Source: a virus. Taken from it: a DNA stretch of 40,668 nt. The notes beneath the pieces are model-generated. The model saw only the letters and a list, made by a program, of their open reading frames with translations, did no database searches and had not been told where the DNA came from. Every line of letters begins with the position of its first letter. Positions within the stretch are counted from its first letter, which is position 1. A program made the position numbers and the translations under genes. This document shows positions 719 to 31,545 of this stretch, one piece after another. The stretch is from IMG/VR virus record IMGVR_UViG_3300034374_004273, positions 1-40,668 of that record. The stretch is one strand, 5' to 3'.

Positions 719-2257
719 TTAGTAATATCCTGGTGAGTATCTTCTAAACGTACGTTCTTCACCTTCTTCATCCAACGCTGAACGCAAATATCCCCCTTTT
801 CTAAAGCGCATAAGCGCCAGGGATACCGAGTCCACATAGTCATCATGCTCCCCTGCGGGAAATGACGCAACCTCGTCAATCACTTCTTCTGCCCAACTTG
901 TAGGCGGTGCCCATACTCTACCAGACGCAAATAAGTCTGACACAGCATTAAGTCTACTTATTTTATCGTTTCCCTTAACCGGCGTGAACTCTTGTACAGG
1001 AATCCCCATCGCCCTCATTTCATATATAAGTGGCGCACCAGAGGCTTTTTTCTCGATAATGATGGAATCTGGATCAAATTCTTCGACTTGCTCCAAAGCT
1101 TTTCGTTTCAAAGTCGGAAACTCCATCCTATCTCGGAACGCATTCAACAATATAATGTTTGCCTCGTTTTTTCCGGTGTTTTCGTCTTCCATAAAGAACA
1201 CACCCCACGTTGTACACGCAGAATAGTCCGATCTATTAGTCTTTTCAAACGCCGTATCCCAAGATTGTAATACAAAATCACAGAACGGAGGGTCTGGTTG
1301 ATCCCATTCTTGCCACCATTCCCGTTTTACGATAGCTGAAGTCTCAGATGTAGGGTTTTGTTGGTACTGAGCCATCCATTTTGAGTTTGGAAGCTCCTCT
1401 TTTAACGCCGAAAGCTCTGACATTGACCAAAATTCGGGCCAAAGTGGGTTACCAGACGGCAAAATAGCTGGAAATTCGATAACTTCCCACTCTTCACCCC
1501 CTCTTAACCCCGCTGCTTTAATAACTTGACCCGTCAAATCCCGTTTTGACCACCTTGTCATCACGATCACGATGGCTCCGCCCGGTTGTAAACGCTGTCG
1601 AGGGCCGGATGTGTACCACTCGTACACTTTATCGTAGATATCTGGATTAGTATCTGCTAGCGCCGCTTCTTGTTCCGAGTGAGGGTCGTCAATAATGAGG
1701 AGATCCGCGCCCTTACCTGTAACTGCACCACCCACACCAATAGCAAAATAGTCTCCACCTTTGTTAGTGGCCCACCTACCGGCTGCTTTGCTGTCCGCCT
1801 GTAAGCCAACTTGTGGAAATAGTTTTGTGTAGATCTCTTGATCAACAAGGTTTCTCACCTTTCTACCAAAGCCAACAGCCAACTCAGCTGTATGGGATGT
1901 TTGAATAACTTTTTTATGCGGATACTTACCTAGGAACCACGCGGGCAGCAGGTAAGAAGCAAACTCTGACTTAGTATGTCGGGGCGGCATATTAATAATC
2001 AGGCGTTTACTCTTACCCTCTGCTACTCGCTCAAAAGCAGCAGCCATCTTCTCATGATGTCTACCACTTATGAATGTGGGCCATACCTGTTTAACAAATG
2101 CTAAAAACCTCGACTGCGCCAGTTTGCGCGTCTTTAGCTCTTCGAGCTTCTCAAGCTCAGCCAATAACTTTTCTTGCTCCGGTAATGAGAGCATAGGCAA
2201 AATAGACGGAATGTCCTTTATAGAGACGTTCTCAATCGCTTGTTTTGCTGTCGTCAT
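719..2257 (-). CDS. terL: Terminase large subunit (TerL)
   Basis: 512-aa packaging motor, ATPase plus nuclease, acting at the portal to translocate and cut DNA. Visible features: Walker A-like PPRHTKSE at residues 91-98, Walker B LLIIDD near 187-191, a coupling-type motif MTRW near 233, and the RNase H-like nuclease acidic residues in SWDTAFEK (D~333), SIIIEKK (E~404) and HDDYVD (~478). Length and motif order fit full-length TerL of tailed phages. It overlaps the end of terS by 26 bases, so translation is probably coupled, and is followed by the portal gene after 12 bases. Confidence 0.96.
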   Translation of the reverse strand: MTTAKQAIENVSIKDIPSILPMLSLPEQEKLLAELEKLEELKTRKLAQSRFLAFVKQVWPTFISGRHHEKMAAAFERVAEGKSKRLIINMPPRHTKSEFASYLLPAWFLGKYPHKKVIQTSHTAELAVGFGRKVRNLVDQEIYTKLFPQVGLQADSKAAGRWATNKGGDYFAIGVGGAVTGKGADLLIIDDPHSEQEAALADTNPDIYDKVYEWYTSGPRQRLQPGGAIVIVMTRWSKRDLTGQVIKAAGLRGGEEWEVIEFPAILPSGNPLWPEFWSMSELSALKEELPNSKWMAQYQQNPTSETSAIVKREWWQEWDQPDPPFCDFVLQSWDTAFEKTNRSDYSACTTWGVFFMEDENTGKNEANIILLNAFRDRMEFPTLKRKALEQVEEFDPDSIIIEKKASGAPLIYEMRAMGIPVQEFTPVKGNDKISRLNAVSDLFASGRVWAPPTSWAEEVIDEVASFPAGEHDDYVDSVSLALMRFRKGGYLRSALDEEGEERTFRRYSPGYY

Positions 2258-2943: not shown

Positions 2944-3249
2944 ATGCGACCTAAGAGAACACCTAAAGCGCAACCCAAACCGAGGGTAGAAAAAGAGAAG
3001 GAAAAGGACGTTGTAACTTGGGGATGTGCCTATATAGAGTGGGAAGATGCAGTGGCTGACTCAGGCTGGGAAGAGACTAAAAAGCCCGAAATACATAAGT
3101 GTCAGACTCTAGGTTTTATTGTAGCTGAAGATAAAGATGCGATCTGTGTGGCAGCTGCCGTATCCAAAAAGGAATCTAATGCCAAGATCAATATCCCCAA
3201 AGGGTGGATTCAGAAGATCAAGCGATTCAAGGTTGAGGGGTTAGGTTAA
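2944..3249 (+). CDS. Hypothetical protein, basic N-terminus
   Basis: 101-aa protein of unrecognised family. The first 23 residues are Lys/Arg/Pro-rich and look disordered (RPKRTPKAQPKPR), followed by a compact region with WGCAYIEWEDAVADSGW and a C-terminal KGWIQKIKRF. The start is preceded by AAAAGGA at good distance. It is the only plus-strand gene between the packaging genes and the main early block, diverging from terS and converging on pqqA (12 bases between stop codons). The fold resembles small phage proteins that carry a short beta-rich domain, but I cannot name a function. Confidence 0.7.
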   Translation: MRPKRTPKAQPKPRVEKEKEKDVVTWGCAYIEWEDAVADSGWEETKKPEIHKCQTLGFIVAEDKDAICVAAAVSKKESNAKINIPKGWIQKIKRFKVEGLG

Positions 3250-3261: not shown

Positions 3262-3333
3262 TTACTTAGTAGCAATGTACATTGTTACTTCAAAGCCAAA
3301 TCTCATTTCGGTGTATTCAGGTTTTGTCCACAT
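3262..3333 (-). CDS. pqqA: PqqA, pyrroloquinoline quinone precursor peptide
   Basis: A 23-codon gene, ATG at 3331-3333 and TAA at 3262-3264. The peptide begins [12 protein letters not shown] and ends [11 protein letters not shown]. Known PqqA peptides of the 23-24 aa class start MWxKP and carry G-x-E-V-T-x-Y. The Glu and Tyr that the radical SAM enzyme PqqE cross-links to build PQQ are at positions 15 and 19, exactly as in the Klebsiella-type peptide. AAAGGA lies 7 bases before the start. It is the last gene of a minus-strand operon behind a metallopeptidase-like gene and an exported protein. No pqqB, C, D or E is visible, so maturation would depend on the host pathway. The role is inferred: raising PQQ supply for host quinoprotein dehydrogenases, or acting as a competing substrate. 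Confidence 0.88.
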
Positions 3334-3353
3334 GGCAGTTCCTTTGTTTTTGG

Positions 3354-3653
3354 TTAGTAAGTCTCATAACTGTACCTAACCTTTACCCGCCACTCATCAT
3401 AATTATCATGAAATAGCATCTCGGCTCTAACGGCTTCTGCTTCACGTAATCTCCACTCACTCCAGTCTTTAGCCCCACCACCAGACTTATTATATTGGCA
3501 GCTGTGGTACAGCTCGTGCACTAGAACTCCAGCCCTCATCATATCGGGTCTTACATATACTACGTTATCCAGAAAGAAAGTCGCGTTCGATGGAAGCACC
3601 CATGCGGTAGGTATGCAGTTAAGAGTTAGCAGAAATGCAAGAACGGTGTCCAC
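3354..3653 (-). CDS. Small HExxH metallopeptidase-like protein
   Basis: 99-aa protein with a zincin signature HELYH at residues 46-50, preceded by the hydrophobic helix start AGVLV and followed by REAEAVRAE (E71/E73), where a third zinc ligand of a gluzincin would be expected. The N-terminal ~20 residues ([18 protein letters not shown]) are hydrophobic and may be a signal or membrane segment. The start appears to be GTG at 3651-3653, reached two bases after the TAA of the upstream gene, suggesting translational coupling, because an in-frame stop lies just upstream and no other start fits. It is followed 20 bases later by pqqA. The protein is short for a protease; it could be a minimal peptidase or a non-catalytic relative. 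Confidence 0.65.
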
Positions 3654-3655
3654 AT

Positions 3656-3976
3656 TTATATGTACTCATCAGATCCTTGTTTTACGCAGTCTGAATAAAT
3701 CCCTTCCGTTAGCTTTAACAAGTCAGACTCAATTCTCATCCGTTCTACCACTTCTAGCTTAAACTGCTCGGCCCAAGCCAGTGACATACCTAACTCACTA
3801 GGGGTTTTTGCATCTGGAAAAACAAATTTTATTTGGTCAAGTGCTACCCCATCATTCACTGCATTTGCCACATCCCTACCTAGTAATGCCTTTGTTTTGC
3901 ATTCTTCTTTTAGTTGATCATCCGCATACAAAGGAAATGCAAACAGCGCCAACCATATATAAACCAGTTTTTTCAT
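3656..3976 (-). CDS. Exported protein with signal peptide, unknown function
   Basis: 106-aa protein starting MKKLVYIWLALFAFPLYADD, a textbook Sec signal peptide with likely cleavage after the ALYA-like PLYA site. The mature part is about 88 residues, helical, with cysteines in EECKTK and SDCVKQG that could form one disulfide in the periplasm. AGGAG precedes the ATG. It is the first gene of the minus-strand operon ending in pqqA, so an envelope or periplasmic role linked to the other two products is possible. I do not recognise the family. Confidence 0.7.
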   Translation of the reverse strand: MKKLVYIWLALFAFPLYADDQLKEECKTKALLGRDVANAVNDGVALDQIKFVFPDAKTPSELGMSLAWAEQFKLEVVERMRIESDLLKLTEGIYSDCVKQGSDEYI

Positions 3977-6778: not shown

Positions 6779-7915
6779 ATGTCTGATGACAAACACAATA
6801 TAGACGGCTATGTTTCACTCAGCCAAGCCATAGAGTTTATTGCTCATAACCCAGAAGTACGAGTGCATTTAGAGGGTAACCCAGGAATGGGTAAAAGTTC
6901 TGCTACCCCACTAATATCCAAAAGAGCTAGCGAAATACATGATGTGGAGTATGTGGATGCTTATTTTGACGCGGCTACTGCCGATACTGGTGATGTGGTT
7001 TATCCATTAGTAGATAGGGAGAACAAGACATACGAGTGGATTGCCAATAGCCTGTTCAGATTGCGAGAGGGTAAGCGAGTAGTCATAAATATAGACGAGC
7101 TAACTAAGGCTTTCGCTTCTGTGGTGAATGCTGTCCACCCACTACTTGAACAGAACAATCCGAGGTTGGGTATCGAGAAGTTGCCCAAGGGTTCTATTGT
7201 CTTTAGTACCGGTAACCTTACGTCGGATGGGGTTGGGGATAAGATGCAGGGCCATACCAGAAATCGCTTGGTGAAGTTGCGGGTTCGTAACCATACTAAC
7301 GAGGAGTGGCTACATAACTACGCTGTACCTAATGAGTTACACCCAATACTTTGTGCGTGGGTACACCGAAAGCCTGAGTTGTTCGAGATGCACACCCAGT
7401 ATAAGGATTCGGATAGGGCTGAGAATGGTGGTAAGTTACCAAACCCATATATCTTTGACCCCAAGATGCAAGGTGGACAGGGATGCGTTACACCTAGATC
7501 GCTATCCTTTTGTAGCCCGATACTAAAATCTTACGAGCGCAAAGTGATTGATTATCATACTTGTAGGCAAGCACTGGTAGGTACAATTGGTGAGGTGGGT
7601 GGCAGAGACTTGATCTCTTTTGTGGATGCTCACGCTACGTTGCCACACCTAGAGCATATTATCGCCAAACCACTTGAAGCCCCTATGCCTACTGATTTAG
7701 GTGCTATGTGTCTATTGTCTTGGGAGTTGCAAGCCAAGCTCGATAAAGATAATGCGATTAGTTTGATGCAGTATGTGGGGCGTATGACACCAGAGTGGCA
7801 ATCAGTTGTGCGGTTTGCTTTGGTTAAGCATCCTACGAAAATGAACATAGTGACTCGTATCAAAGAGTTTACGCATTGGTTCGCAGAGAATCACGATTTA
7901 GTAGCTAGCGTATAA
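6779..7915 (+). CDS. MoxR-family AAA+ ATPase
   Basis: 378-aa AAA+ ATPase. Walker A GNPGMGKSS is at residues 33-41, Walker B VVINIDEL at 101-108 and a sensor-1 type STGN at 143-146. The short N-terminus before Walker A and the order of motifs fit the MoxR group, whose members act as chaperone-like remodelers, usually together with a VWA-domain partner. That partner is encoded next, after 15 bases with a GGAGG site. AAGGAGG precedes this ATG, and the gene is headed by its own promoter and leader element. The substrate is unknown. In phages such pairs may assemble or remodel metal-containing or membrane complexes; this is inference. Confidence 0.9.
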   Translation: MSDDKHNIDGYVSLSQAIEFIAHNPEVRVHLEGNPGMGKSSATPLISKRASEIHDVEYVDAYFDAATADTGDVVYPLVDRENKTYEWIANSLFRLREGKRVVINIDELTKAFASVVNAVHPLLEQNNPRLGIEKLPKGSIVFSTGNLTSDGVGDKMQGHTRNRLVKLRVRNHTNEEWLHNYAVPNELHPILCAWVHRKPELFEMHTQYKDSDRAENGGKLPNPYIFDPKMQGGQGCVTPRSLSFCSPILKSYERKVIDYHTCRQALVGTIGEVGGRDLISFVDAHATLPHLEHIIAKPLEAPMPTDLGAMCLLSWELQAKLDKDNAISLMQYVGRMTPEWQSVVRFALVKHPTKMNIVTRIKEFTHWFAENHDLVASV

Positions 7916-7930
7916 GGAGGTAACACTAAC

Positions 7931-9127
7931 ATGATTAATATTCATTCGGCTGAACGTAAAGTAGAACGGGCGAAGATATTTCTATCTACACAACCCAAGT
8001 TTGCGTTGTGGTCTGGCGCTCTTTTCGTAGGTAAACACACCATAGTTGATGACCCAGAGATGACCGCCTGTACTAATGGAGTTGATGACAAGTACGGAAG
8101 GCAGTTCATCGAATCTCTTACTGATAAGCAAGTACGGTATGTGGTACTTCATGAAACCATGCACAAGTTGTTCAAACACCTACGAGTGTATAGGAGTTTG
8201 TTTAAGAAGAACGCTGATGTAGCTAATCAAGCCTGTGATTATGTGGGCAATCTGGAGTTGGAGAAGGCTGACCCGAGGAAAGAGTTTATCGAGATGCCTA
8301 CCATTAACGGTATCAAAGTTGGGCTACTGGATTGGCGGTTTGATAATATGAGTTCCGATAAAGTGTTCGACATACTCTACAAGGAGCAAGCACAGAATGA
8401 TGGCGGAGAGAGTGAGGGAACGGGTGGTTTTGATAGCCACGATTGGGAAGGGGCTGGCAATATGTCCGCCGAGGAGTGGGAAAAAGCTGAGAAGGATATT
8501 GAGACCGCAGTGCAACAAGGCAAGCGTAACCACGAGAAGTTACATGGTAAAGGCTCCGCCAAAGGCTCGATGGTACTGAATGAGTTGCTAGACCCTAAGA
8601 TTAATTGGGTAGATGTATTAGCTGAGTTTATATCTACTAACATGAAGGGGCGCGATGCTACCACTTGGGCGCGACCTAACCGCAGATTTGTTGGGGCTGG
8701 TGAGTATATGCCTAGTTCAATATCCCGAACCATGCAATCCGTTGCCTTATGTGGTGATACTTCCGGCTCTATGTATGAGGATATGACTCGCTCGATGTCT
8801 GAGGCGCAAGCAATCATTAGTTTGTGTCAACCCGAGCAAGTGGATGTGCTGTTTTGGGACTCCGCAGTTACAGGCCACGAGGTATATAAATCGCGTGAGG
8901 ATACTGACTTATACACAAAGACAAAACCCACTGGTGGCGGCGGTACTGATCCTAACTGTATACCCGCGTATATGAAAGATAAGCAGATGACCCCCCAATG
9001 TGCAGTAGTAATAACCGATGGCTACTTCGCATCATGGGGCGAGTGGGATGTACCAGTATTGTGGTGTGTGATAGGCAACAAGAAAGCAATAGCACCAGTA
9101 GGACAAACCGTACATATAGATAATTAA
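7931..9127 (+). CDS. VWA-like metallopeptidase-domain protein (MoxR partner)
   Basis: 398-aa protein with two parts. The N-terminal part has HETMH at residues 74-78 within VRYVVLHETMHKLFKHL, followed by ANQACDYVGN, the signature of the putative metallopeptidase domain usually found with this VWA type. The C-terminal part has a MIDAS motif DTSGS at 276-280 and a glycine-rich GGGGTDP near 336, typical of a metal-binding VWA-like fold. A Glu/Gly-rich linker (about 155-200) joins them. The architecture corresponds to the DUF2201-type N-domain plus VWA-like family commonly paired with MoxR ATPases. The role is probably as adaptor or effector of the ATPase. Confidence 0.88.
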   Translation: MINIHSAERKVERAKIFLSTQPKFALWSGALFVGKHTIVDDPEMTACTNGVDDKYGRQFIESLTDKQVRYVVLHETMHKLFKHLRVYRSLFKKNADVANQACDYVGNLELEKADPRKEFIEMPTINGIKVGLLDWRFDNMSSDKVFDILYKEQAQNDGGESEGTGGFDSHDWEGAGNMSAEEWEKAEKDIETAVQQGKRNHEKLHGKGSAKGSMVLNELLDPKINWVDVLAEFISTNMKGRDATTWARPNRRFVGAGEYMPSSISRTMQSVALCGDTSGSMYEDMTRSMSEAQAIISLCQPEQVDVLFWDSAVTGHEVYKSREDTDLYTKTKPTGGGGTDPNCIPAYMKDKQMTPQCAVVITDGYFASWGEWDVPVLWCVIGNKKAIAPVGQTVHIDN

Positions 9128-24721: not shown

Positions 24722-24752
24722 CCCCCAGTGTAACAACTGGGGGTTTCTTTTT
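24722..24752 (+). terminator. Intrinsic terminator of the rightward block
   Basis: Stem CCCCCAGT / ACTGGGGG (24722-24729, 24736-24743), six-base loop, then TTTCTTTTT. It lies 91 bases after the last plus-strand gene and just before the 3' end of the leftward late block. It stops early/middle transcription from reading antisense into the late genes. Confidence 0.9.
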
Positions 24753-27700
24753 ACTCCTCTGGATAAACTCTACTCTTAAGGACTAAGGGTAGGATTGCAT
24801 TCATTGAGTTAGGGCTAAGTATCAAACCATCTCCAGCAGACATCCTGCTCTTTGCTCTACCGGTTGCAGACTTATAAAGTGCCTCTCCAGTTATGGCGTA
24901 CTGTCCGTTGCGTACGTTGAATATACCTATTTCTTTCCATACTTCTTCTAAGTTTTCAACGCTCTCGTCAGTCATAGACCTGTTGTATTGCTGTATAGCT
25001 TTATCGTATTTGTCGTAGAGAGCGGATCTTTCATTCAATATGGATTTCTCAAGCTCTTTAGCTAGTACATTTTTCTCCCTAACTTCCGCTACTTCTGTGC
25101 TGCTAAATCCAGCTGCTGTACCTATTAACTTACCAGTGTGATACCACTCAGCACTTCTAATCGGAACACCTTTGTTTGTTATCTCACCTTGTTCAGCCAA
25201 CCTGGATGCTTTTATAAATCCACGTATTGCGGCAGGGGTAAGCTTTTCGAACCCACGTTTATATTCTCCGTTAGCCAAATCTTCAACTATAGCTGTCTTA
25301 AAGTCTTTTACTAAGCTACCAGCAGGGCCAAAAGCGGCATTCACTACATTAACCCATAGGCTGTCTATATCTTCATTTGCCAAACTACGGGTGTAGAAAA
25401 GACCATCTAGGCTAGTTGAAGAACCAATGTTTTGGTCTGTAATCGCTGATATAGGGCCAAGTTTAACTGCTCGTTGTAGTGTAAGAGCTTGCTCATCAGT
25501 TAACCCAAAAGCTTTAGCAATACTGCTATCTGGGCCGAAGTAAGTTGGAAGGAACCACTCTCTAAACCACAAATCTAAATTACGTTTGCCTAGAGGGTTA
25601 CCGTCGTCATCCATGTCATACCATAAGGCTTCCTCATCCTCGTCATCTGGTCTGAACATATCCCTCACTGCTTCAGCTAACCCCATCATTACACTGTAAT
25701 GGAACAAACCTGTAGTTCCAGCAAACATAAATGACATACCCATCACACCAAAGAATTTAATAGCTGCTTCTCTCTTCTGTGTCTTGTTTAGCAGGGGTAT
25801 CATCCCAAAGAAGTTTTTATACATGAACAACGTCATGTTTATTGGGAAGGTCATAAACTGTGCAGGCAACCTTACAAATGCAGTAATACCTCTACCCTTC
25901 ATTAACTCTGGTTTATTGAAATTACCATAATCAAACAGAGATTCGTAAGTAACATCAACTGCGTTCATAGCCGCTGTTCTTGCGGCAGCTCTAGGAGATA
26001 CTATTTTCTTGTCTTTTGCGAGTAGCTCATTAACAGCATCTTCTTCTGTATATCTACCAGTATCAGCTAAGAATTTATTTTCAGTCATCAAGTTTTGTAT
26101 AGCTTGAGTCTGAGATCTATAAGGTGCATACAAAGCCTCGACTGCCTGTGCGCGGGTCATATTTGGATTAGCATTTCTTATCTTGCTAATCTGCGCTTCA
26201 TATCCAGTCATTTGTTTTTTCATTTCCAAGTCTAAAGCGGCGCTAAACATCAACTGTCTACTTGTTCTCTCCATATGATGGAACGCACCAGATAGGAAAT
26301 TAGCCACAGTGCGAGTAACAAATGCTGTCGTATTATGGTATTCTCGACTTGGAACTCTTGTTCTTTGTGAAACTTCAGTAGCAAAAGTATCGTTAATAAC
26401 CCCAGATTCTTCTGCTATGTCTATAGCATCGTTATACCAACCCCTATAATCTTCAGGGATATCTTCTAGTACATGCTTTGTTCTTTTTAGGTCTGGCTTT
26501 TCAAACGTCATTGCTAGCTGACCATCAGCTCTAACTTTTCTAGTAGCAAGTTTATTGGAGAGGTTTAGATATTTAGTAGCCGTAGCCACAGCCTCAATAG
26601 TTCCATATCTTGCTGCAAGAACCGGTAATCCAACTAAAGGTAACTGAGTCAACTGAACCATAGCTGATTTAGCCGAAGTTAAGTAATAGAAGAACGCGGC
26701 TTGGTTTCCATACCGTATAGCTCTTTCTAAGCCTTCATACCTTTCACCTATTGGATCACCACTTGTTTCAGCTAAGGCCCTTGATACCATACGATCTACA
26801 TATGCTCTTGCCTTTAGTAAGTTAGTTCCACCTCTACCTTCTAGCTCAGCATATGCAGAAGCAATAGATGCGTTAACTCGGTTAGAGTATTTCATTTTAG
26901 ACAACTGGTTTGTAGCTTGGTGGTTGCTTACCAAGAACGCTCTAAAAGCATCTCCAGAAAAACCAGCGGTGCCTTTTCTTTTAACAAATCTTCTGCGCAT
27001 ACTTTGTTCTGGCAGAGTCTGTATATATAGCTGATATATTTCATTCTTAAGGTTATTTACACTAGTTCCGCTTAGTACTTTTTGTCCCGTTGCTGGGTCG
27101 ACAACTAAATTACTGTCTATCTCAGAGAATATCTTCTTCATTAATTTAGAAGAAGCATCCACATTTTTAGGGTCTAATCCGGCTAATTCATTTCTAAGCT
27201 GAACGCTATCCCCAATATCTGTTATTTCTTGTTGTATTTCAGAAAGTGGCCTTGGGTCGTTTGTGTTTTCTTTGTACTCTTCAGCTAGTTGTCTAGCTTT
27301 TAAATTACGCGCGGTAGCACTCTCAAACATATAAAATGCTCTGTCTGCGCCCTTACCAAACCCAACATAATGATTACCAAAACGCATTAACGGAAAGTAA
27401 ATGTTTCCTCGTTTAGCAATTTCATCTAAAACTTCTACTTGAATAGTGGCAAGTATGTTGCTCTTTGCTGTCTCGGATATACTATTATTATCTTTAACGC
27501 GCTTTATAAGGGCGTCATAGTATTCTTGGAAATTCTTCTGATACCGGTTTTTAGCCATTTCATATATTATTTTGGCTTGACCATTAGTATCCTTATTTAA
27601 CTGCTCCCACCCACTGTACTGATACGTTATATTTCCTTTAGTATCTTTATTCACAAACCCTTTATAAAAAATTTGCAGTGCTTCGGTTCTTTTCTTTGCT

Positions 27701-30700
27701 TCACCCTTTGCAGCTGCTTGTTGCCTTACACTTAACGCTGGGTCTTGTGCTCTAGCTTGGGCATCTTTTATAACGGAGTCATTCTTTACTGCTTCTTCAA
27801 AAGTATTATGTTTTGTACCATCTATATCGTATAAAGTAGATAGGTGCATCGAGTCAGATAAGTTTCTATTAGCTATCCCACCAAACTTGCGAACAAACTT
27901 ACTCCACAAATCAGCTTCTTCAGCTAGCGTTTTTGTTCTCTTCATCCTCTCAGCAGTTACTGCCCTAACCATTTCTCTAATTCTTTTAGGGGCGTTCAAC
28001 CCGTAGAACTTATTGGCTAAGTCTATAATCTTGTCACTAGGTAAGGTATAAAGAATAGCTTTAAGCGATCCAACTGATATGGAGTCTTTAAACGCGTCTA
28101 AAAATTTTACCGATGACGCTACGTCTCTAGTCCTAAATAAGTCTTTGACTGCTTCCGCGAAAGAATTAAAAGTCTGAGAAGCCATAACTTTCTTCTTAGC
28201 TCTAGCTGCTGTCTTACTTTCTTTATTTGCATAGGCAACTATATTAGCTGGGGGAGACGTGCCAAAGACTTTAGGATCTAGTATACGGTCAGTAACCAGC
28301 ACTAAGTCTTCAAAAGCCGTACTTATGTCCCCTTCAAACCCGAATAGTTTCTGTACAGCTTTAATAAACTGGCTGAGTTTTCCACGTTTAGTGTTCTGTG
28401 CAGGAATTTTCTGCAGGATATTCTGCATTTCAGGCTGGCTAAGGCCATAGCTCACAAAGTCTTTTGTATCTGCAAAAGCACCCAGGTCTTTTAGTGCTAG
28501 CTCTTCGTCAGTAGCCACACCGTTTTGTTGTCTCTGGTCAATATAGTTCTCGACCTGACCTCTAAGATCTTCTAGCTGGTTCAACGCTTTCTGTTGTTTT
28601 AGCGGTGTCTTTGTAGGATCTTGAGCATGGTTATCTATTATTCTAGCAGTTGCAGCATGAATAGCTTCGTGTAAGAAAGTAACGTTATTGGTGCCCGCTT
28701 TAGGGCCAGTTCTAGCTAGGTTAATATTCCTAGTACCATCTTCGTTCTCTATATATACGCCAGCACTATCATTCATTTTTTCCGGGTCAGCAAGTCTAAC
28801 TTCGACTCTCTCCAAAAACGGCTTTAATCTATTTGCTAGTAACCGCTCGAATGGCGTTCCAGTTTTCTTGATTCTTTCGATAACATTATCAGCAGGGAAA
28901 AAGTCTCTACCAATTTCCGCATTGTTTCTATCCAGCTCTTCAAATGCAGGATTAACAGTAGGTTGTTGTAGCTGTGGGCCAGTAGGAGTAGTAACTTGTT
29001 TAGGTTGTTTTCCTCTTGGCTTTAGATTCTGTCTAGCCTGTGCAATCCGTTCGGCGGCTGCATCAAATGAGCTCGCACTTGCAGGTATTTCTTCATTTGT
29101 TCTGTTATATACCGCTGTAAAATCACCGTTAAGAACTGTGTTTACAAAAGCATCTATATCTTCATTATCTAGAGCTTCTAAAGCACTTCTTTCTTCAGCT
29201 GTTTGTTCGCCAGTGGTGTCTTGTGTATACTCAGTTTCGTATATATCAGCGTCTGTATACCCGTAGCTTTCAGGGCGTTCTGGATCTTCCTTTATTTTTG
29301 CTATAACTTCCTGTTCAGCCCTGTTTACAATCTCATCAAAAGCTAAAGGCTCGCCTTGAAAATCAGGAGAATCTTGTTCGGACTTTATATCTCTAGCCCT
29401 TTTAACTATTTGGCTCGTTACATTTGAAGTATATGTCTCCCCTGCAGCATCAGGGTCTCTAAAGTTAGTAGCTGTTTCTGCTAGCTGCCTATTAAACTTC
29501 TTGTCTCTTAAAATTCTTTCTTGGCGCTCTATTGCATTAAGCCCATCATATGGGTCTACTTCAGGCTTTTCACCTTTTTTTCTTCGTTTTTTGGTTATTG
29601 TTTCTGTTGGATTTTTTTCTGGGTCTACTTGATCTATTTGGTCTTGAGACGCAGTAAGATTAGGAGCAGTTTCTACCTGTGCGGCTTCTACCTGTGTAGT
29701 TTCTACCTGTGCAGCTTCTACTTTTCTACCTTTTTTACCTTTAGGTTTTACCGGCTCTTCAGTTACTGTTTCAGTTTCAGTTACTGTTTCTGTTGGTTTT
29801 GGGGCTAATACAGTTCTTTTGCCTTGTTTATCTAGGCCTGTTACCAACCCAAAGCTTTCCATTTGGTCTAGAGCCGCTACTACATCAGCGGAATTACCAA
29901 TTTGTAAGTCTCTTTGTATTCTAGAAGGAGAAGTATCACCAGTGGCTAACACATGATCTACTATGCGTTGGTACGCTGCATCTTGTTCTTCTGTAGATAG
30001 TTCTGTAACAGATGGCCCTTCTTCTGTTGTTGTAACATCTTCCGTAGCCGTTTGTCCTTCTATTACTGGGGTAGGTGTATCAATTTTAGACTCTGTTGCT
30101 CTAGCTCTTTCTTCACGCCTTTCTTGGTCTAATCTTGTTCCAGCAATTTGAATAGCTTCAATATCATCTATAGGTTTACCAGCAGCTACGGCGTTATCTT
30201 TCGCTTCGTTTGCATACTGCTCTAATTTTGCAGCAAGATCAGCGGCTTCTTCTTCAGATACATTATTAGCTTCTTCCGCTATTTTGATTGCTTCTTCAAT
30301 ATTTGCTTTAGCTCTGTTAGCAGCTTTTTGTTTTACTCCAGCAACACCTACGTTGATACCTTGTGCTGTTAAAGAACCTAACGACTCGGAGATTGCTGAA
30401 TCTACAACTGCCTTAATGTTGTCGCCAGTAAACACATCCCCAGTCTGCTCTCCTACCGCGAACTGTCCCGCAATATCTATAACTTCTTGGCCTGCACCAG
30501 TAAGAGCCTCTTCGAGCATTACTTTTGGTGTCTCTCTGGCTACACCTTTCATAGCTTCCAGAGCAGTTTTTTCTACTACTTCAGACTCTTTTAGTATTTG
30601 TTCCCCTGCTTCGCCAGCAAGTTTCTTTTTAAATAAACCACTAATTACTCTTGTAGGACCAAAAGCATCGAGCGCACCTTGACCTAAAGCCACTAAAGCA

Positions 30701-31545
30701 GAGGTACTTCCAGTTTTAGCTAAGTACTCTATAACTGCATCAGCACGTTCATTTTCATCCGGTATATTTTTAGTAAGTTCTATTGCATACTCCAAACGTT
30801 GTGAATATTGTTCGGGTAATGCTTGCGCTGTTGATGCACTAACTGCACCGGCAACTGCACCGGGAGGGCCAAAAGTTAAACCACCGACTACTGAAGCACC
30901 TACAACTGGCAAGTACTGTGCACCTGCTGATCCTAAAATATAACCTAAATAATCTCTAAAATCGGCAAGGCTACGGATATCCGTAGGGTTTACTACACGA
31001 GGAGCTAATTCTTCTTCTTTTGCGGCACGTGCTTCAGCGTCTTGTGCTCTTGCATCGCTTACAGATTCTTGGAAATCTTTTAAGTTTTCCTGTATCCGGC
31101 TTTCTATACGTTGTTTTTGTTTTGCTCTATCTTCTGCGGACGCTTGTGTATAGTAATTTATTTGTCCTGAATATTTTAATTTTGTTTCTTCGTCTATGGG
31201 TTGACCGGCGTCTATCTTAGCAAAAACATCTTGTATTTCTCGGTCATTTCTAACAGCAGTTGCATTGTATTGCGCAGAATAGAGCGATGGGTAAGTGCCC
31301 ATTCTTTTGAGCGTACCCTTAAGACCTGTTTCATATAGATTTGCAAAGAATCCACTAGCTTCTTCTTGTTGGGTTTGTTCCCCAAACATAGAAGATTTTT
31401 GCTCTTCTTGTCGATCTTCCTGACCTAAATCAGTAAAAGCGGTGGGGTAATCTCTTTCGATTAGTGCTCGTATTTCTTCTTTAGTAGCATCAGCTCGAAA
31501 TAGCCCTATTTTCCCGTCAGGAAGTCTTATTTTTCTAGGTTCCAC
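24751..31545 (-). CDS. Giant internal virion (ejection) protein, gp16-like, with metallopeptidase motif
   Basis: 2264-aa protein, last of the late block. The start is GTG (31543-31545) with AAGGA before it. The N-terminus EPRKIRLPDGKIGLFRADAT, then EEIRALIERDYPT, is typical of phage ejection proteins. It contains Ala-rich and Gln/Glu/Thr-rich low-complexity regions (about 400-640), an HExxH motif HEAIH at 959-963 followed by DFVSYGLS, and long helical stretches with PF-type hydrophobic segments (about 1910-1950) that could insert in membrane. In T7-like phages gp16 enters the host envelope and cuts peptidoglycan; here a metallopeptidase-like domain may replace the transglycosylase. No transglycosylase signature was seen. 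Confidence 0.85.
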   Translation of the reverse strand: MEPRKIRLPDGKIGLFRADATKEEIRALIERDYPTAFTDLGQEDRQEEQKSSMFGEQTQQEEASGFFANLYETGLKGTLKRMGTYPSLYSAQYNATAVRNDREIQDVFAKIDAGQPIDEETKLKYSGQINYYTQASAEDRAKQKQRIESRIQENLKDFQESVSDARAQDAEARAAKEEELAPRVVNPTDIRSLADFRDYLGYILGSAGAQYLPVVGASVVGGLTFGPPGAVAGAVSASTAQALPEQYSQRLEYAIELTKNIPDENERADAVIEYLAKTGSTSALVALGQGALDAFGPTRVISGLFKKKLAGEAGEQILKESEVVEKTALEAMKGVARETPKVMLEEALTGAGQEVIDIAGQFAVGEQTGDVFTGDNIKAVVDSAISESLGSLTAQGINVGVAGVKQKAANRAKANIEEAIKIAEEANNVSEEEAADLAAKLEQYANEAKDNAVAAGKPIDDIEAIQIAGTRLDQERREERARATESKIDTPTPVIEGQTATEDVTTTEEGPSVTELSTEEQDAAYQRIVDHVLATGDTSPSRIQRDLQIGNSADVVAALDQMESFGLVTGLDKQGKRTVLAPKPTETVTETETVTEEPVKPKGKKGRKVEAAQVETTQVEAAQVETAPNLTASQDQIDQVDPEKNPTETITKKRRKKGEKPEVDPYDGLNAIERQERILRDKKFNRQLAETATNFRDPDAAGETYTSNVTSQIVKRARDIKSEQDSPDFQGEPLAFDEIVNRAEQEVIAKIKEDPERPESYGYTDADIYETEYTQDTTGEQTAEERSALEALDNEDIDAFVNTVLNGDFTAVYNRTNEEIPASASSFDAAAERIAQARQNLKPRGKQPKQVTTPTGPQLQQPTVNPAFEELDRNNAEIGRDFFPADNVIERIKKTGTPFERLLANRLKPFLERVEVRLADPEKMNDSAGVYIENEDGTRNINLARTGPKAGTNNVTFLHEAIHAATARIIDNHAQDPTKTPLKQQKALNQLEDLRGQVENYIDQRQQNGVATDEELALKDLGAFADTKDFVSYGLSQPEMQNILQKIPAQNTKRGKLSQFIKAVQKLFGFEGDISTAFEDLVLVTDRILDPKVFGTSPPANIVAYANKESKTAARAKKKVMASQTFNSFAEAVKDLFRTRDVASSVKFLDAFKDSISVGSLKAILYTLPSDKIIDLANKFYGLNAPKRIREMVRAVTAERMKRTKTLAEEADLWSKFVRKFGGIANRNLSDSMHLSTLYDIDGTKHNTFEEAVKNDSVIKDAQARAQDPALSVRQQAAAKGEAKKRTEALQIFYKGFVNKDTKGNITYQYSGWEQLNKDTNGQAKIIYEMAKNRYQKNFQEYYDALIKRVKDNNSISETAKSNILATIQVEVLDEIAKRGNIYFPLMRFGNHYVGFGKGADRAFYMFESATARNLKARQLAEEYKENTNDPRPLSEIQQEITDIGDSVQLRNELAGLDPKNVDASSKLMKKIFSEIDSNLVVDPATGQKVLSGTSVNNLKNEIYQLYIQTLPEQSMRRRFVKRKGTAGFSGDAFRAFLVSNHQATNQLSKMKYSNRVNASIASAYAELEGRGGTNLLKARAYVDRMVSRALAETSGDPIGERYEGLERAIRYGNQAAFFYYLTSAKSAMVQLTQLPLVGLPVLAARYGTIEAVATATKYLNLSNKLATRKVRADGQLAMTFEKPDLKRTKHVLEDIPEDYRGWYNDAIDIAEESGVINDTFATEVSQRTRVPSREYHNTTAFVTRTVANFLSGAFHHMERTSRQLMFSAALDLEMKKQMTGYEAQISKIRNANPNMTRAQAVEALYAPYRSQTQAIQNLMTENKFLADTGRYTEEDAVNELLAKDKKIVSPRAAARTAAMNAVDVTYESLFDYGNFNKPELMKGRGITAFVRLPAQFMTFPINMTLFMYKNFFGMIPLLNKTQKREAAIKFFGVMGMSFMFAGTTGLFHYSVMMGLAEAVRDMFRPDDEDEEALWYDMDDDGNPLGKRNLDLWFREWFLPTYFGPDSSIAKAFGLTDEQALTLQRAVKLGPISAITDQNIGSSTSLDGLFYTRSLANEDIDSLWVNVVNAAFGPAGSLVKDFKTAIVEDLANGEYKRGFEKLTPAAIRGFIKASRLAEQGEITNKGVPIRSAEWYHTGKLIGTAAGFSSTEVAEVREKNVLAKELEKSILNERSALYDKYDKAIQQYNRSMTDESVENLEEVWKEIGIFNVRNGQYAITGEALYKSATGRAKSRMSAGDGLILSPNSMNAILPLVLKSRVYPEE
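29671..29718 (-). repeat. 15-bp tandem repeats inside the giant gene
   Basis: Three copies of a 15-base unit (plus strand TTCTACCTGTG plus four variable bases) and a partial fourth encode EAAQVETTQVEAAQVE in a Thr/Glu/Val-rich linker. This is probably a slippage-prone, disordered spacer. Confidence 0.75.

What the first reader, a model, noticed from the sequence alone, without database searches (positions are those of the whole stretch)
3262..3333. Phage-encoded PqqA precursor peptide
A 23-codon gene with ribosome site encodes a peptide that matches the PqqA layout from end to end: MWxKP start, G-x-E-V-T-x-Y core, and Glu15/Tyr19 in the exact places used for the PqqE cross-link. It is in a phage genome, between packaging genes and the early region. 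No other pqq gene is present, so the phage would feed a substrate into the host PQQ pathway. PQQ limits periplasmic alcohol, aldehyde or glucose dehydrogenases, so this could boost host respiration during infection, or divert the pathway as a decoy. It was probably missed before because it is too short for usual gene callers.
Basis: partly seen in the sequence, partly recalled or inferred. Interest (0 to 1): 0.92.

Follow-up and report, generated by a model that had tools for sequence, protein, structure and literature searches.

The report
Phage-carried PqqA peptide, PQQ cofactor precursor
This virus of bacteria carries a tiny, usually overlooked gene for the consumable peptide from which its host builds the cofactor PQQ, and the same lone gene turns up in many unrelated viruses, including every virus of methanol-eating bacteria that our phage searches returned, so it probably keeps alcohol-burning metabolism running during infection.

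Summary
On the minus strand at 3333-3262 lies an intact 23-codon gene with a ribosome site. Its product, [23 protein letters not shown], passes both curated PqqA models at about twice the cut-off, with Glu15 and Tyr19 in place. It is a lone pqq gene in a real phage genome.

It is also far from isolated. A capped scan of IMG/VR gave at least 120 viral contigs with a complete pqqA, in phage backgrounds that share little else. Among 50,697 phage records, three PqqA queries hit only nine Methylophilales/Methylophilaceae phage records, one environmental phage, and two mislabelled host contigs. In the records I opened, the gene is unannotated or a hypothetical ORF is called on the wrong strand. An unrelated phage lineage encodes exactly the window's peptide with different synonymous codons. 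No copy with a lost Glu15 or Tyr19 was found by the negative patterns run.

That this raises PQQ is inferred, not shown. Phage pqqA has been reported before (Lake Baikal VP_266, 2020), so the kind is known; the breadth, lone-gene pattern and selection evidence appear new.

The parts
3262..3333 (-). pqqA: 23-aa PQQ precursor peptide [23 protein letters not shown] plus stop; Glu15 and Tyr19 are the expected PqqE cross-link residues
   Evidence: frame conserved in related phages
3340..3345 (-). Shine-Dalgarno-like AAAGGA, 6 nt before the ATG
   Evidence: upstream sequence; comparable AGGAG/AAGGA sites precede nearly all of the 121 viral pqqA genes printed there
3354..3653 (-). 99-aa ORF with a HELYH metallopeptidase-like motif, ending 20 nt before pqqA and probably co-transcribed with it; function unknown
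   Evidence: no PHROG or Pfam match. Co-transcription is inferred from spacing
3656..3976 (-). 106-aa ORF with signal-peptide-like N-terminus, upstream in the same minus-strand run
   Evidence: no family match
719..2257 (-). terminase large subunit, synteny anchor: pqqA starts about 1.1 kb before terL here and in L124 and L125

Best explanation
It is a true pqqA gene acting as a phage auxiliary metabolic gene. The phage makes extra PqqA peptide. The host's PqqD and PqqE would cross-link Glu15 to Tyr19, and PqqF/G, PqqB and PqqC would finish PQQ, which loads the host's periplasmic PQQ alcohol/methanol dehydrogenases. PqqA is the only component consumed one per PQQ, while the enzymes turn over, so a phage needs to carry only this gene to keep PQQ supplied once host gene expression is cut off. 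Shown: identity of the gene, intactness, purifying selection, occurrence in unrelated phages, absence of other PQQ genes in nearly all records tested. Inferred: expression in infection, processing by host enzymes, rise in PQQ, benefit to the phage, and the host.
For: Curated PqqA models passed at about twice the cut-off. At least 120 viral contigs carry a complete pqqA, in 31 groups by shared gene content, 20 of them single contigs, including portal, T7-type polymerase, tail-sheath and tail-fibre neighbours. Three PqqA queries against 50,697 phage records return only nine Methylophilales/Methylophilaceae phage records, one spring-water phage, and two Acinetobacter 'phage' contigs; the one of these I opened carries pqqB, pqqC, pqqD and a radical SAM gene, so it is host DNA. 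It is a lone PQQ gene: radical SAM in 1 of 50 records, PQQ dehydrogenase repeats in 0 of 50, radical SAM in 0 of 9 further records. Selection: pN/pS 0.20 overall and 0.31 at codons not fixed by the search pattern. Forty-eight contigs of an unrelated lineage share only pqqA with the window and encode the identical peptide; the four compared differ by 7-8 synonymous changes and no nonsynonymous one. Host biology fits: 185 of 187 Methylophilaceae genomes have pqqA, in 1 to 12 copies, and published Methylophilaceae genomes carry 3-12 pqqA copies with the other pqq genes typically single (PMC4109929). Purified PqqA is reported to be converted to PQQ by Gluconobacter extract at 70-80% (cited in PMC9851590).
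Against: No expression or PQQ data were found for any of these phages. The host of the window is not established. Its peptide type was not found in Methylophilaceae (0 of 187); the closest host peptide found (21 of 23) is in small Burkholderiales genomes with two pqqA copies, pqqB/C/E and PQQ alcohol dehydrogenases. Such hosts already carry more than one pqqA, so PqqA need not be limiting. Presence is patchy: four contig fragments with terminase about 90% identical lack it at that place.
Confidence: 0.77

Rival explanations
1. Decoy or pathway diverter: phage PqqA occupies PqqD/PqqE and lowers or redirects host PQQ synthesis.
For: PqqA binds PqqD at sub-micromolar Kd (PMC10906245), so excess peptide could titrate the chaperone.
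Against: A decoy should tolerate or favour loss of the cross-link residues. Corrected collection scans for phage-like PqqA with Glu15 replaced (first base not G) or Tyr19 replaced (second base not A) gave 0 hits, against 106 intact loci in the capped sample. The scans do not cover every possible substitution, such as Glu to Asp.
Confidence: 0.06
2. PqqA-derived signal or other role: the peptide or its modified form acts in regulation, superinfection exclusion or another process rather than as cofactor precursor.
For: Host methylotrophs carry many dispersed pqqA copies, more than a simple precursor need might suggest; one pqqA copy was reported to dominate PQQ synthesis (title of reference 20 in PMC9851590).
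Against: The conserved positions are those expected for cross-linking, G-F-E-V-T-x-Y, in all 130 phage copies compared, though most of these positions were fixed by the search pattern. No separate function of PqqA turned up in the papers read.
Confidence: 0.08
3. Passenger or host contamination: a host fragment in viral bins, or a neutral hitchhiker.
For: A contaminated case exists: an 'Acinetobacter phage' contig with pqqB, pqqC, pqqD and a radical SAM gene.
Against: The window has a terminase, DNA polymerase, helicase and virion genes. The gene is in isolated, sequenced phages. It is under purifying selection and no phage copy is identical in DNA to a sampled host copy.
Confidence: 0.03

Closest known systems
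PqqA of Lake Baikal methylotroph phage VP_266 (Coutinho et al. 2020, PMC7678222)
   Same: Phage-encoded PqqA predicted to support host methanol oxidation through PQQ.
   Different: There, in T4-like metagenomic contigs that also encode methanol dehydrogenase. Here a lone pqqA, without PQQ dehydrogenase repeats in any of 50 sampled pqqA-bearing records, in many unrelated phage types. That paper also states that isolate P19250A encoded none of the reported AMGs, yet it has an unannotated intact pqqA.
Virus-encoded pqqA/pqqD/pqqE reported in reservoir sediments (PMC13188868, 2026)
   Same: PQQ genes listed among viral auxiliary genes.
   Different: Interpreted as phosphate solubilisation and not analysed as peptides in the passages read.
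Host pqqA copies of Methylophilaceae, Methylophagaceae and marine Burkholderiales
   Same: Same 23-aa peptide family; several phage peptides are identical to host ones ([23 protein letters not shown]).
   Different: Phage copies lie in viral genomes without pqqBCDE; DNA differs from every sampled host copy.
Isolated methylophages Venkman, P19250A, MEP301, MEP401, MEP402, Melnitz
   Same: All carry an intact pqqA.
   Different: Unrelated genomes; the gene is not annotated as pqqA in the records opened. The papers on MEP301, MEP401/402 and Melnitz do not discuss it.

Membership tests
PqqA (PF08042 / TIGR02107) | Scores above the curated family cut-offs over the full profile | tested here: met
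   43.9 vs 21.1 bits (residues 1-19 of 19 profile positions) and 47.7 vs 20 bits (profile 1-21 of 21)
PqqA (PF08042 / TIGR02107) | Glu and Tyr spaced i/i+4 in an E-V-T-x-Y core for PqqE cross-linking | tested here: met
   E15-V-T-M-Y19; numbering in PMC10906245
PqqA (PF08042 / TIGR02107) | Free-standing short ORF of about 22-29 codons with its own start and ribosome site | tested here: met
   23 codons, AAAGGA 6 nt upstream
PqqA (PF08042 / TIGR02107) | Serves as substrate of PqqD/PqqE and is converted to PQQ | not testable with these tools
   Needs biochemistry
Phage auxiliary metabolic gene | Lies in a bona fide viral genome | tested here: met
   Terminase, DNA polymerase, helicase, virion proteins in the window; pqqA also in isolated phages
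Phage auxiliary metabolic gene | Homologue of a host metabolic gene, kept functional by selection, but not core to the phage | tested here: met
   pN/pS 0.20-0.31; present in L124, L125, L352 and absent at the same place in contigs L126, L128-L130
Phage auxiliary metabolic gene | Expressed in infection and raises host flux | not testable with these tools
   No transcript or metabolite data held
Decoy peptide | Altered or lost cross-link residues | tested here: not met
   0 hits for Glu15 or Tyr19 replacements by the patterns used

The most novel reading that the evidence does not exclude
A lone pqqA is a near-universal, convergently acquired signature gene of phages that infect PQQ-dependent (mostly methylotrophic) bacteria: unrelated phage families each carry only the consumable RiPP precursor and leave the enzymes to the host, making substrate-peptide supply a distinct and largely unannotated class of auxiliary gene that marks methylotroph phages in metagenomes.
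Probability: 0.55. Interest if true: 0.75.

Novelty: new member of a known kind. Interest (0 to 1): 0.66.

Why it matters
PQQ is needed for the first step of methanol oxidation, a sizeable carbon flux in the sea and in lakes. If phages carry the consumed precursor of that cofactor, viral control of methylotrophy is wider than the few published cases suggest, and short-gene blindness has hidden it even in cultured, published phages. It is directly testable, because isolated phage-host pairs with the gene exist, and it offers a 69-base marker for methylotroph phages in metagenomes. It also argues that PqqA supply, rather than the PQQ enzymes, may be what runs short in an infected cell.

Tried and rejected
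Searches used patterns one N too short and are invalid; their zero counts are not used. Contamination was considered and rejected for the window and the isolates, but accepted for Acinetobacter phage MD-2021a. Host assignment by PqqA pattern failed in Methylophilaceae and in a sample of the class of the Methylophaga genome; Methylophagaceae give EYSDM-type peptides, not EYTEM; Burkholderiales gave the nearest match. The window has no tRNA to help. Not settled: whether NCBI-listed phages MEP431-434, HIM624-A, Venkman EXVC038S, MG-MtP1 and RSA-MFP1 lack the gene or are simply not held.

Full report
WHAT IS THERE. The gene lies on the minus strand, 3333 to 3262, and reads [23 protein letters not shown] followed by a stop. 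AAAGGA sits 6 nt before the ATG. Pfam PqqA scores 43.9 bits against a cut-off of 21.1, and NCBIfam TIGR02107 scores 47.7 against 20. It is the only PqqA match in the 40.7-kb virus record, E 8.8e-12. The gene starts 20 nt after a 99-aa ORF on the same strand and about 1 kb before the terminase large subunit. A convergent 101-aa ORF on the plus strand ends at 3249 with a terminator-like hairpin beside it; one such site in this stretch is no more than chance gives. The record encodes terminase, a family A DNA polymerase, helicase, primase/helicase-like, virion and endolysin proteins. It has no radical SAM gene, so no PqqE.

IT IS COMMON IN PHAGES. A pattern for W-x-K-P ... All have an ATG and a stop giving 23 to 25 residues, and nearly all a purine-rich ribosome-site-like stretch upstream. 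By shared gene families the 121 loci, window included, fall into 31 groups, 20 of which are single contigs; short contigs inflate that number. Proteins from several groups are portal, T7-type DNA polymerase, tail sheath, tail fibre and other phage proteins. In the curated phage collection, three PqqA queries (window type, Pseudomonas/Neptuniibacter type, Methylophilaceae type) at E up to 10 found the same twelve records: MEP301, MEP401, MEP402, Venkman, four Melnitz records, P19250A, one spring-water podovirus, and two Acinetobacter 'phage' contigs. The Acinetobacter contig I opened carries pqqB, pqqC, pqqD and a radical SAM gene and is host DNA. No other phage of Pseudomonas, Klebsiella or Acinetobacter, whose hosts can own pqqA, was returned. 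In the isolates no feature is annotated at the gene (MEP301, MEP401, MEP402, Venkman, P19250A) or a hypothetical ORF is called on the other strand (Melnitz-1, and the spring-water MW202481).

IT IS A LONE PQQ GENE. Of 50 pqqA-bearing viral records, one had any radical SAM domain and none had PQQ dehydrogenase repeats; nine further records had no radical SAM. Many of these are fragments, so absence is not proven for each, but the pattern across records is clear.

IT IS KEPT BY SELECTION. Relatives of the window found through the terminase, not through pqqA, keep the frame at the same place: L124 with 7.5 of 13.0 synonymous and 4.5 of 53.0 nonsynonymous differences, L125 with 9.5 of 11.8 and 3.5 of 54.2. 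Over all phage copies pN/pS is 0.20, and 0.31 at codons the search pattern did not fix; synonymous sites are near saturation, so these are rough. The window's exact peptide occurs in 50 contigs. Two belong to the window's own lineage (L351 100% and L352 90% identical DNA). The other 48 form a different lineage with no homology to the window outside pqqA. The four of those 48 compared in detail encode the same 23 residues with 7-8 synonymous changes and no nonsynonymous change; these were picked for identical peptides, so the zero is by selection of cases, but the absence of any other shared gene is not. Presence is patchy: contigs L126, L128, L129 and L130, with terminase about 90% identical, lack it at that place. 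Corrected scans for copies with Glu15 or Tyr19 replaced gave none.

THE HOSTS. 185 of 187 Methylophilaceae genomes have pqqA, with 1 to 12 copies each. This matches a published statement that this family carries 3-12 pqqA copies with the other pqq genes typically in single copy (PMC4109929). Methylophaga and related genomes often carry two or three tandem copies and several more elsewhere. Many phage peptides are identical to Methylophilaceae ones, so those phages probably infect Methylophilaceae. For the window itself the nearest host peptide, 21 of 23 residues, is in small Burkholderiales genomes (about 1.8-2.1 Mb, 44-46% GC at the locus; window 41.6%). They have two pqqA copies about 5 kb apart, with pqqB, pqqC and pqqE adjacent in the one examined, and PQQ alcohol dehydrogenases. 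The related phage L125 shares the core [18 protein letters not shown] with them. This host guess rests on one short peptide and is weak.

HOW IT PROBABLY WORKS. PqqE, with PqqD, joins Glu and Tyr of PqqA; protease, PqqB and PqqC finish PQQ (PMC10906245). PqqA is consumed one per PQQ while enzymes are reused (established pathway knowledge). Gluconobacter extract is reported to turn added PqqA into PQQ at 70-80% (cited in PMC9851590), so added peptide can be used where enzymes are present. A phage that stops host expression would cut off this short peptide, and re-supplying it costs 72 bases. This explains why only pqqA is carried, why it is intact, and why hosts themselves amplify it. Expression, processing and benefit are inferred.

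PRIOR ART AND NOVELTY. Phage PqqA was reported in 2020 in a T4-like Baikal contig alongside methanol dehydrogenase (PMC7678222), and virus-encoded pqqA/D/E in 2026 reservoir data (PMC13188868). The papers on MEP301, MEP401/402 and Melnitz do not mention PqqA, and the Baikal paper says P19250A lacks the AMGs reported there, although it carries an intact pqqA. A survey of viral methane-metabolism AMGs has no PQQ term in its text. In the open-access library searched, I found no report of the general pattern; subscription papers and preprints were not searched. The gene is therefore a new member of a known kind, with a breadth that appears unreported.

LIMITS. Most contigs are fragments. Host links are by peptide similarity except for isolates. 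Several NCBI-listed Methylophilales phages were not seen in the collection, and I could not tell absence of the gene from absence of the record.

Noticed in passing
window 6779-9127 (+): Adjacent AAA_5 (MoxR-like) ATPase and DUF2201 metallopeptidase/VWA pair. MoxR/VWA pairs are known in methanol dehydrogenase maturation clusters (from memory), so a second link to methanol oxidation is possible, though such pairs also occur elsewhere.
   Followed up: no
window 24751-31545 (-): 2264-aa protein with an FtsK gamma domain and stretches resembling DarB-like antirestriction and virion RNA polymerase PHROGs; probably an injected internal virion protein.
   Followed up: partly
L301 (CAKLQF020000010.1 104210-112275): Record deposited as Acinetobacter phage MD-2021a carries pqqA followed by pqqB, pqqC, pqqD and a radical SAM gene, plus polyphosphate kinase: it is bacterial DNA, not phage.
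   Followed up: yes
L298 (Melnitz-1, MZ577095.1 about 74882-74953): Melnitz pqqA overlaps a hypothetical ORF called on the opposite strand and lies just before a tRNA-Leu gene; its peptide starts MKWTKP.
   Followed up: yes
L368, L370, L371 (Burkholderiales genomes G849, G688, G879): Two or three pqqA copies in opposite orientations about 5 kb apart. In L368 pqqB, pqqC and pqqE follow one copy and a sensor kinase, response regulator and cytochrome b561-like gene lie near the other.
   Followed up: partly
L361 (IMGVR_UViG_3300025652_006157, 58 kb): Only viral contig found with the Methylophaga-type EYSDM PqqA core; a possible Methylophaga phage, or host DNA (no radical SAM on the record).
   Followed up: partly
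L036 record G014 (IMGVR_UViG_3300023110_001238), 47243-47563: The one pqqA-bearing viral record with a radical SAM gene; not checked whether it is PqqE-like.
   Followed up: no
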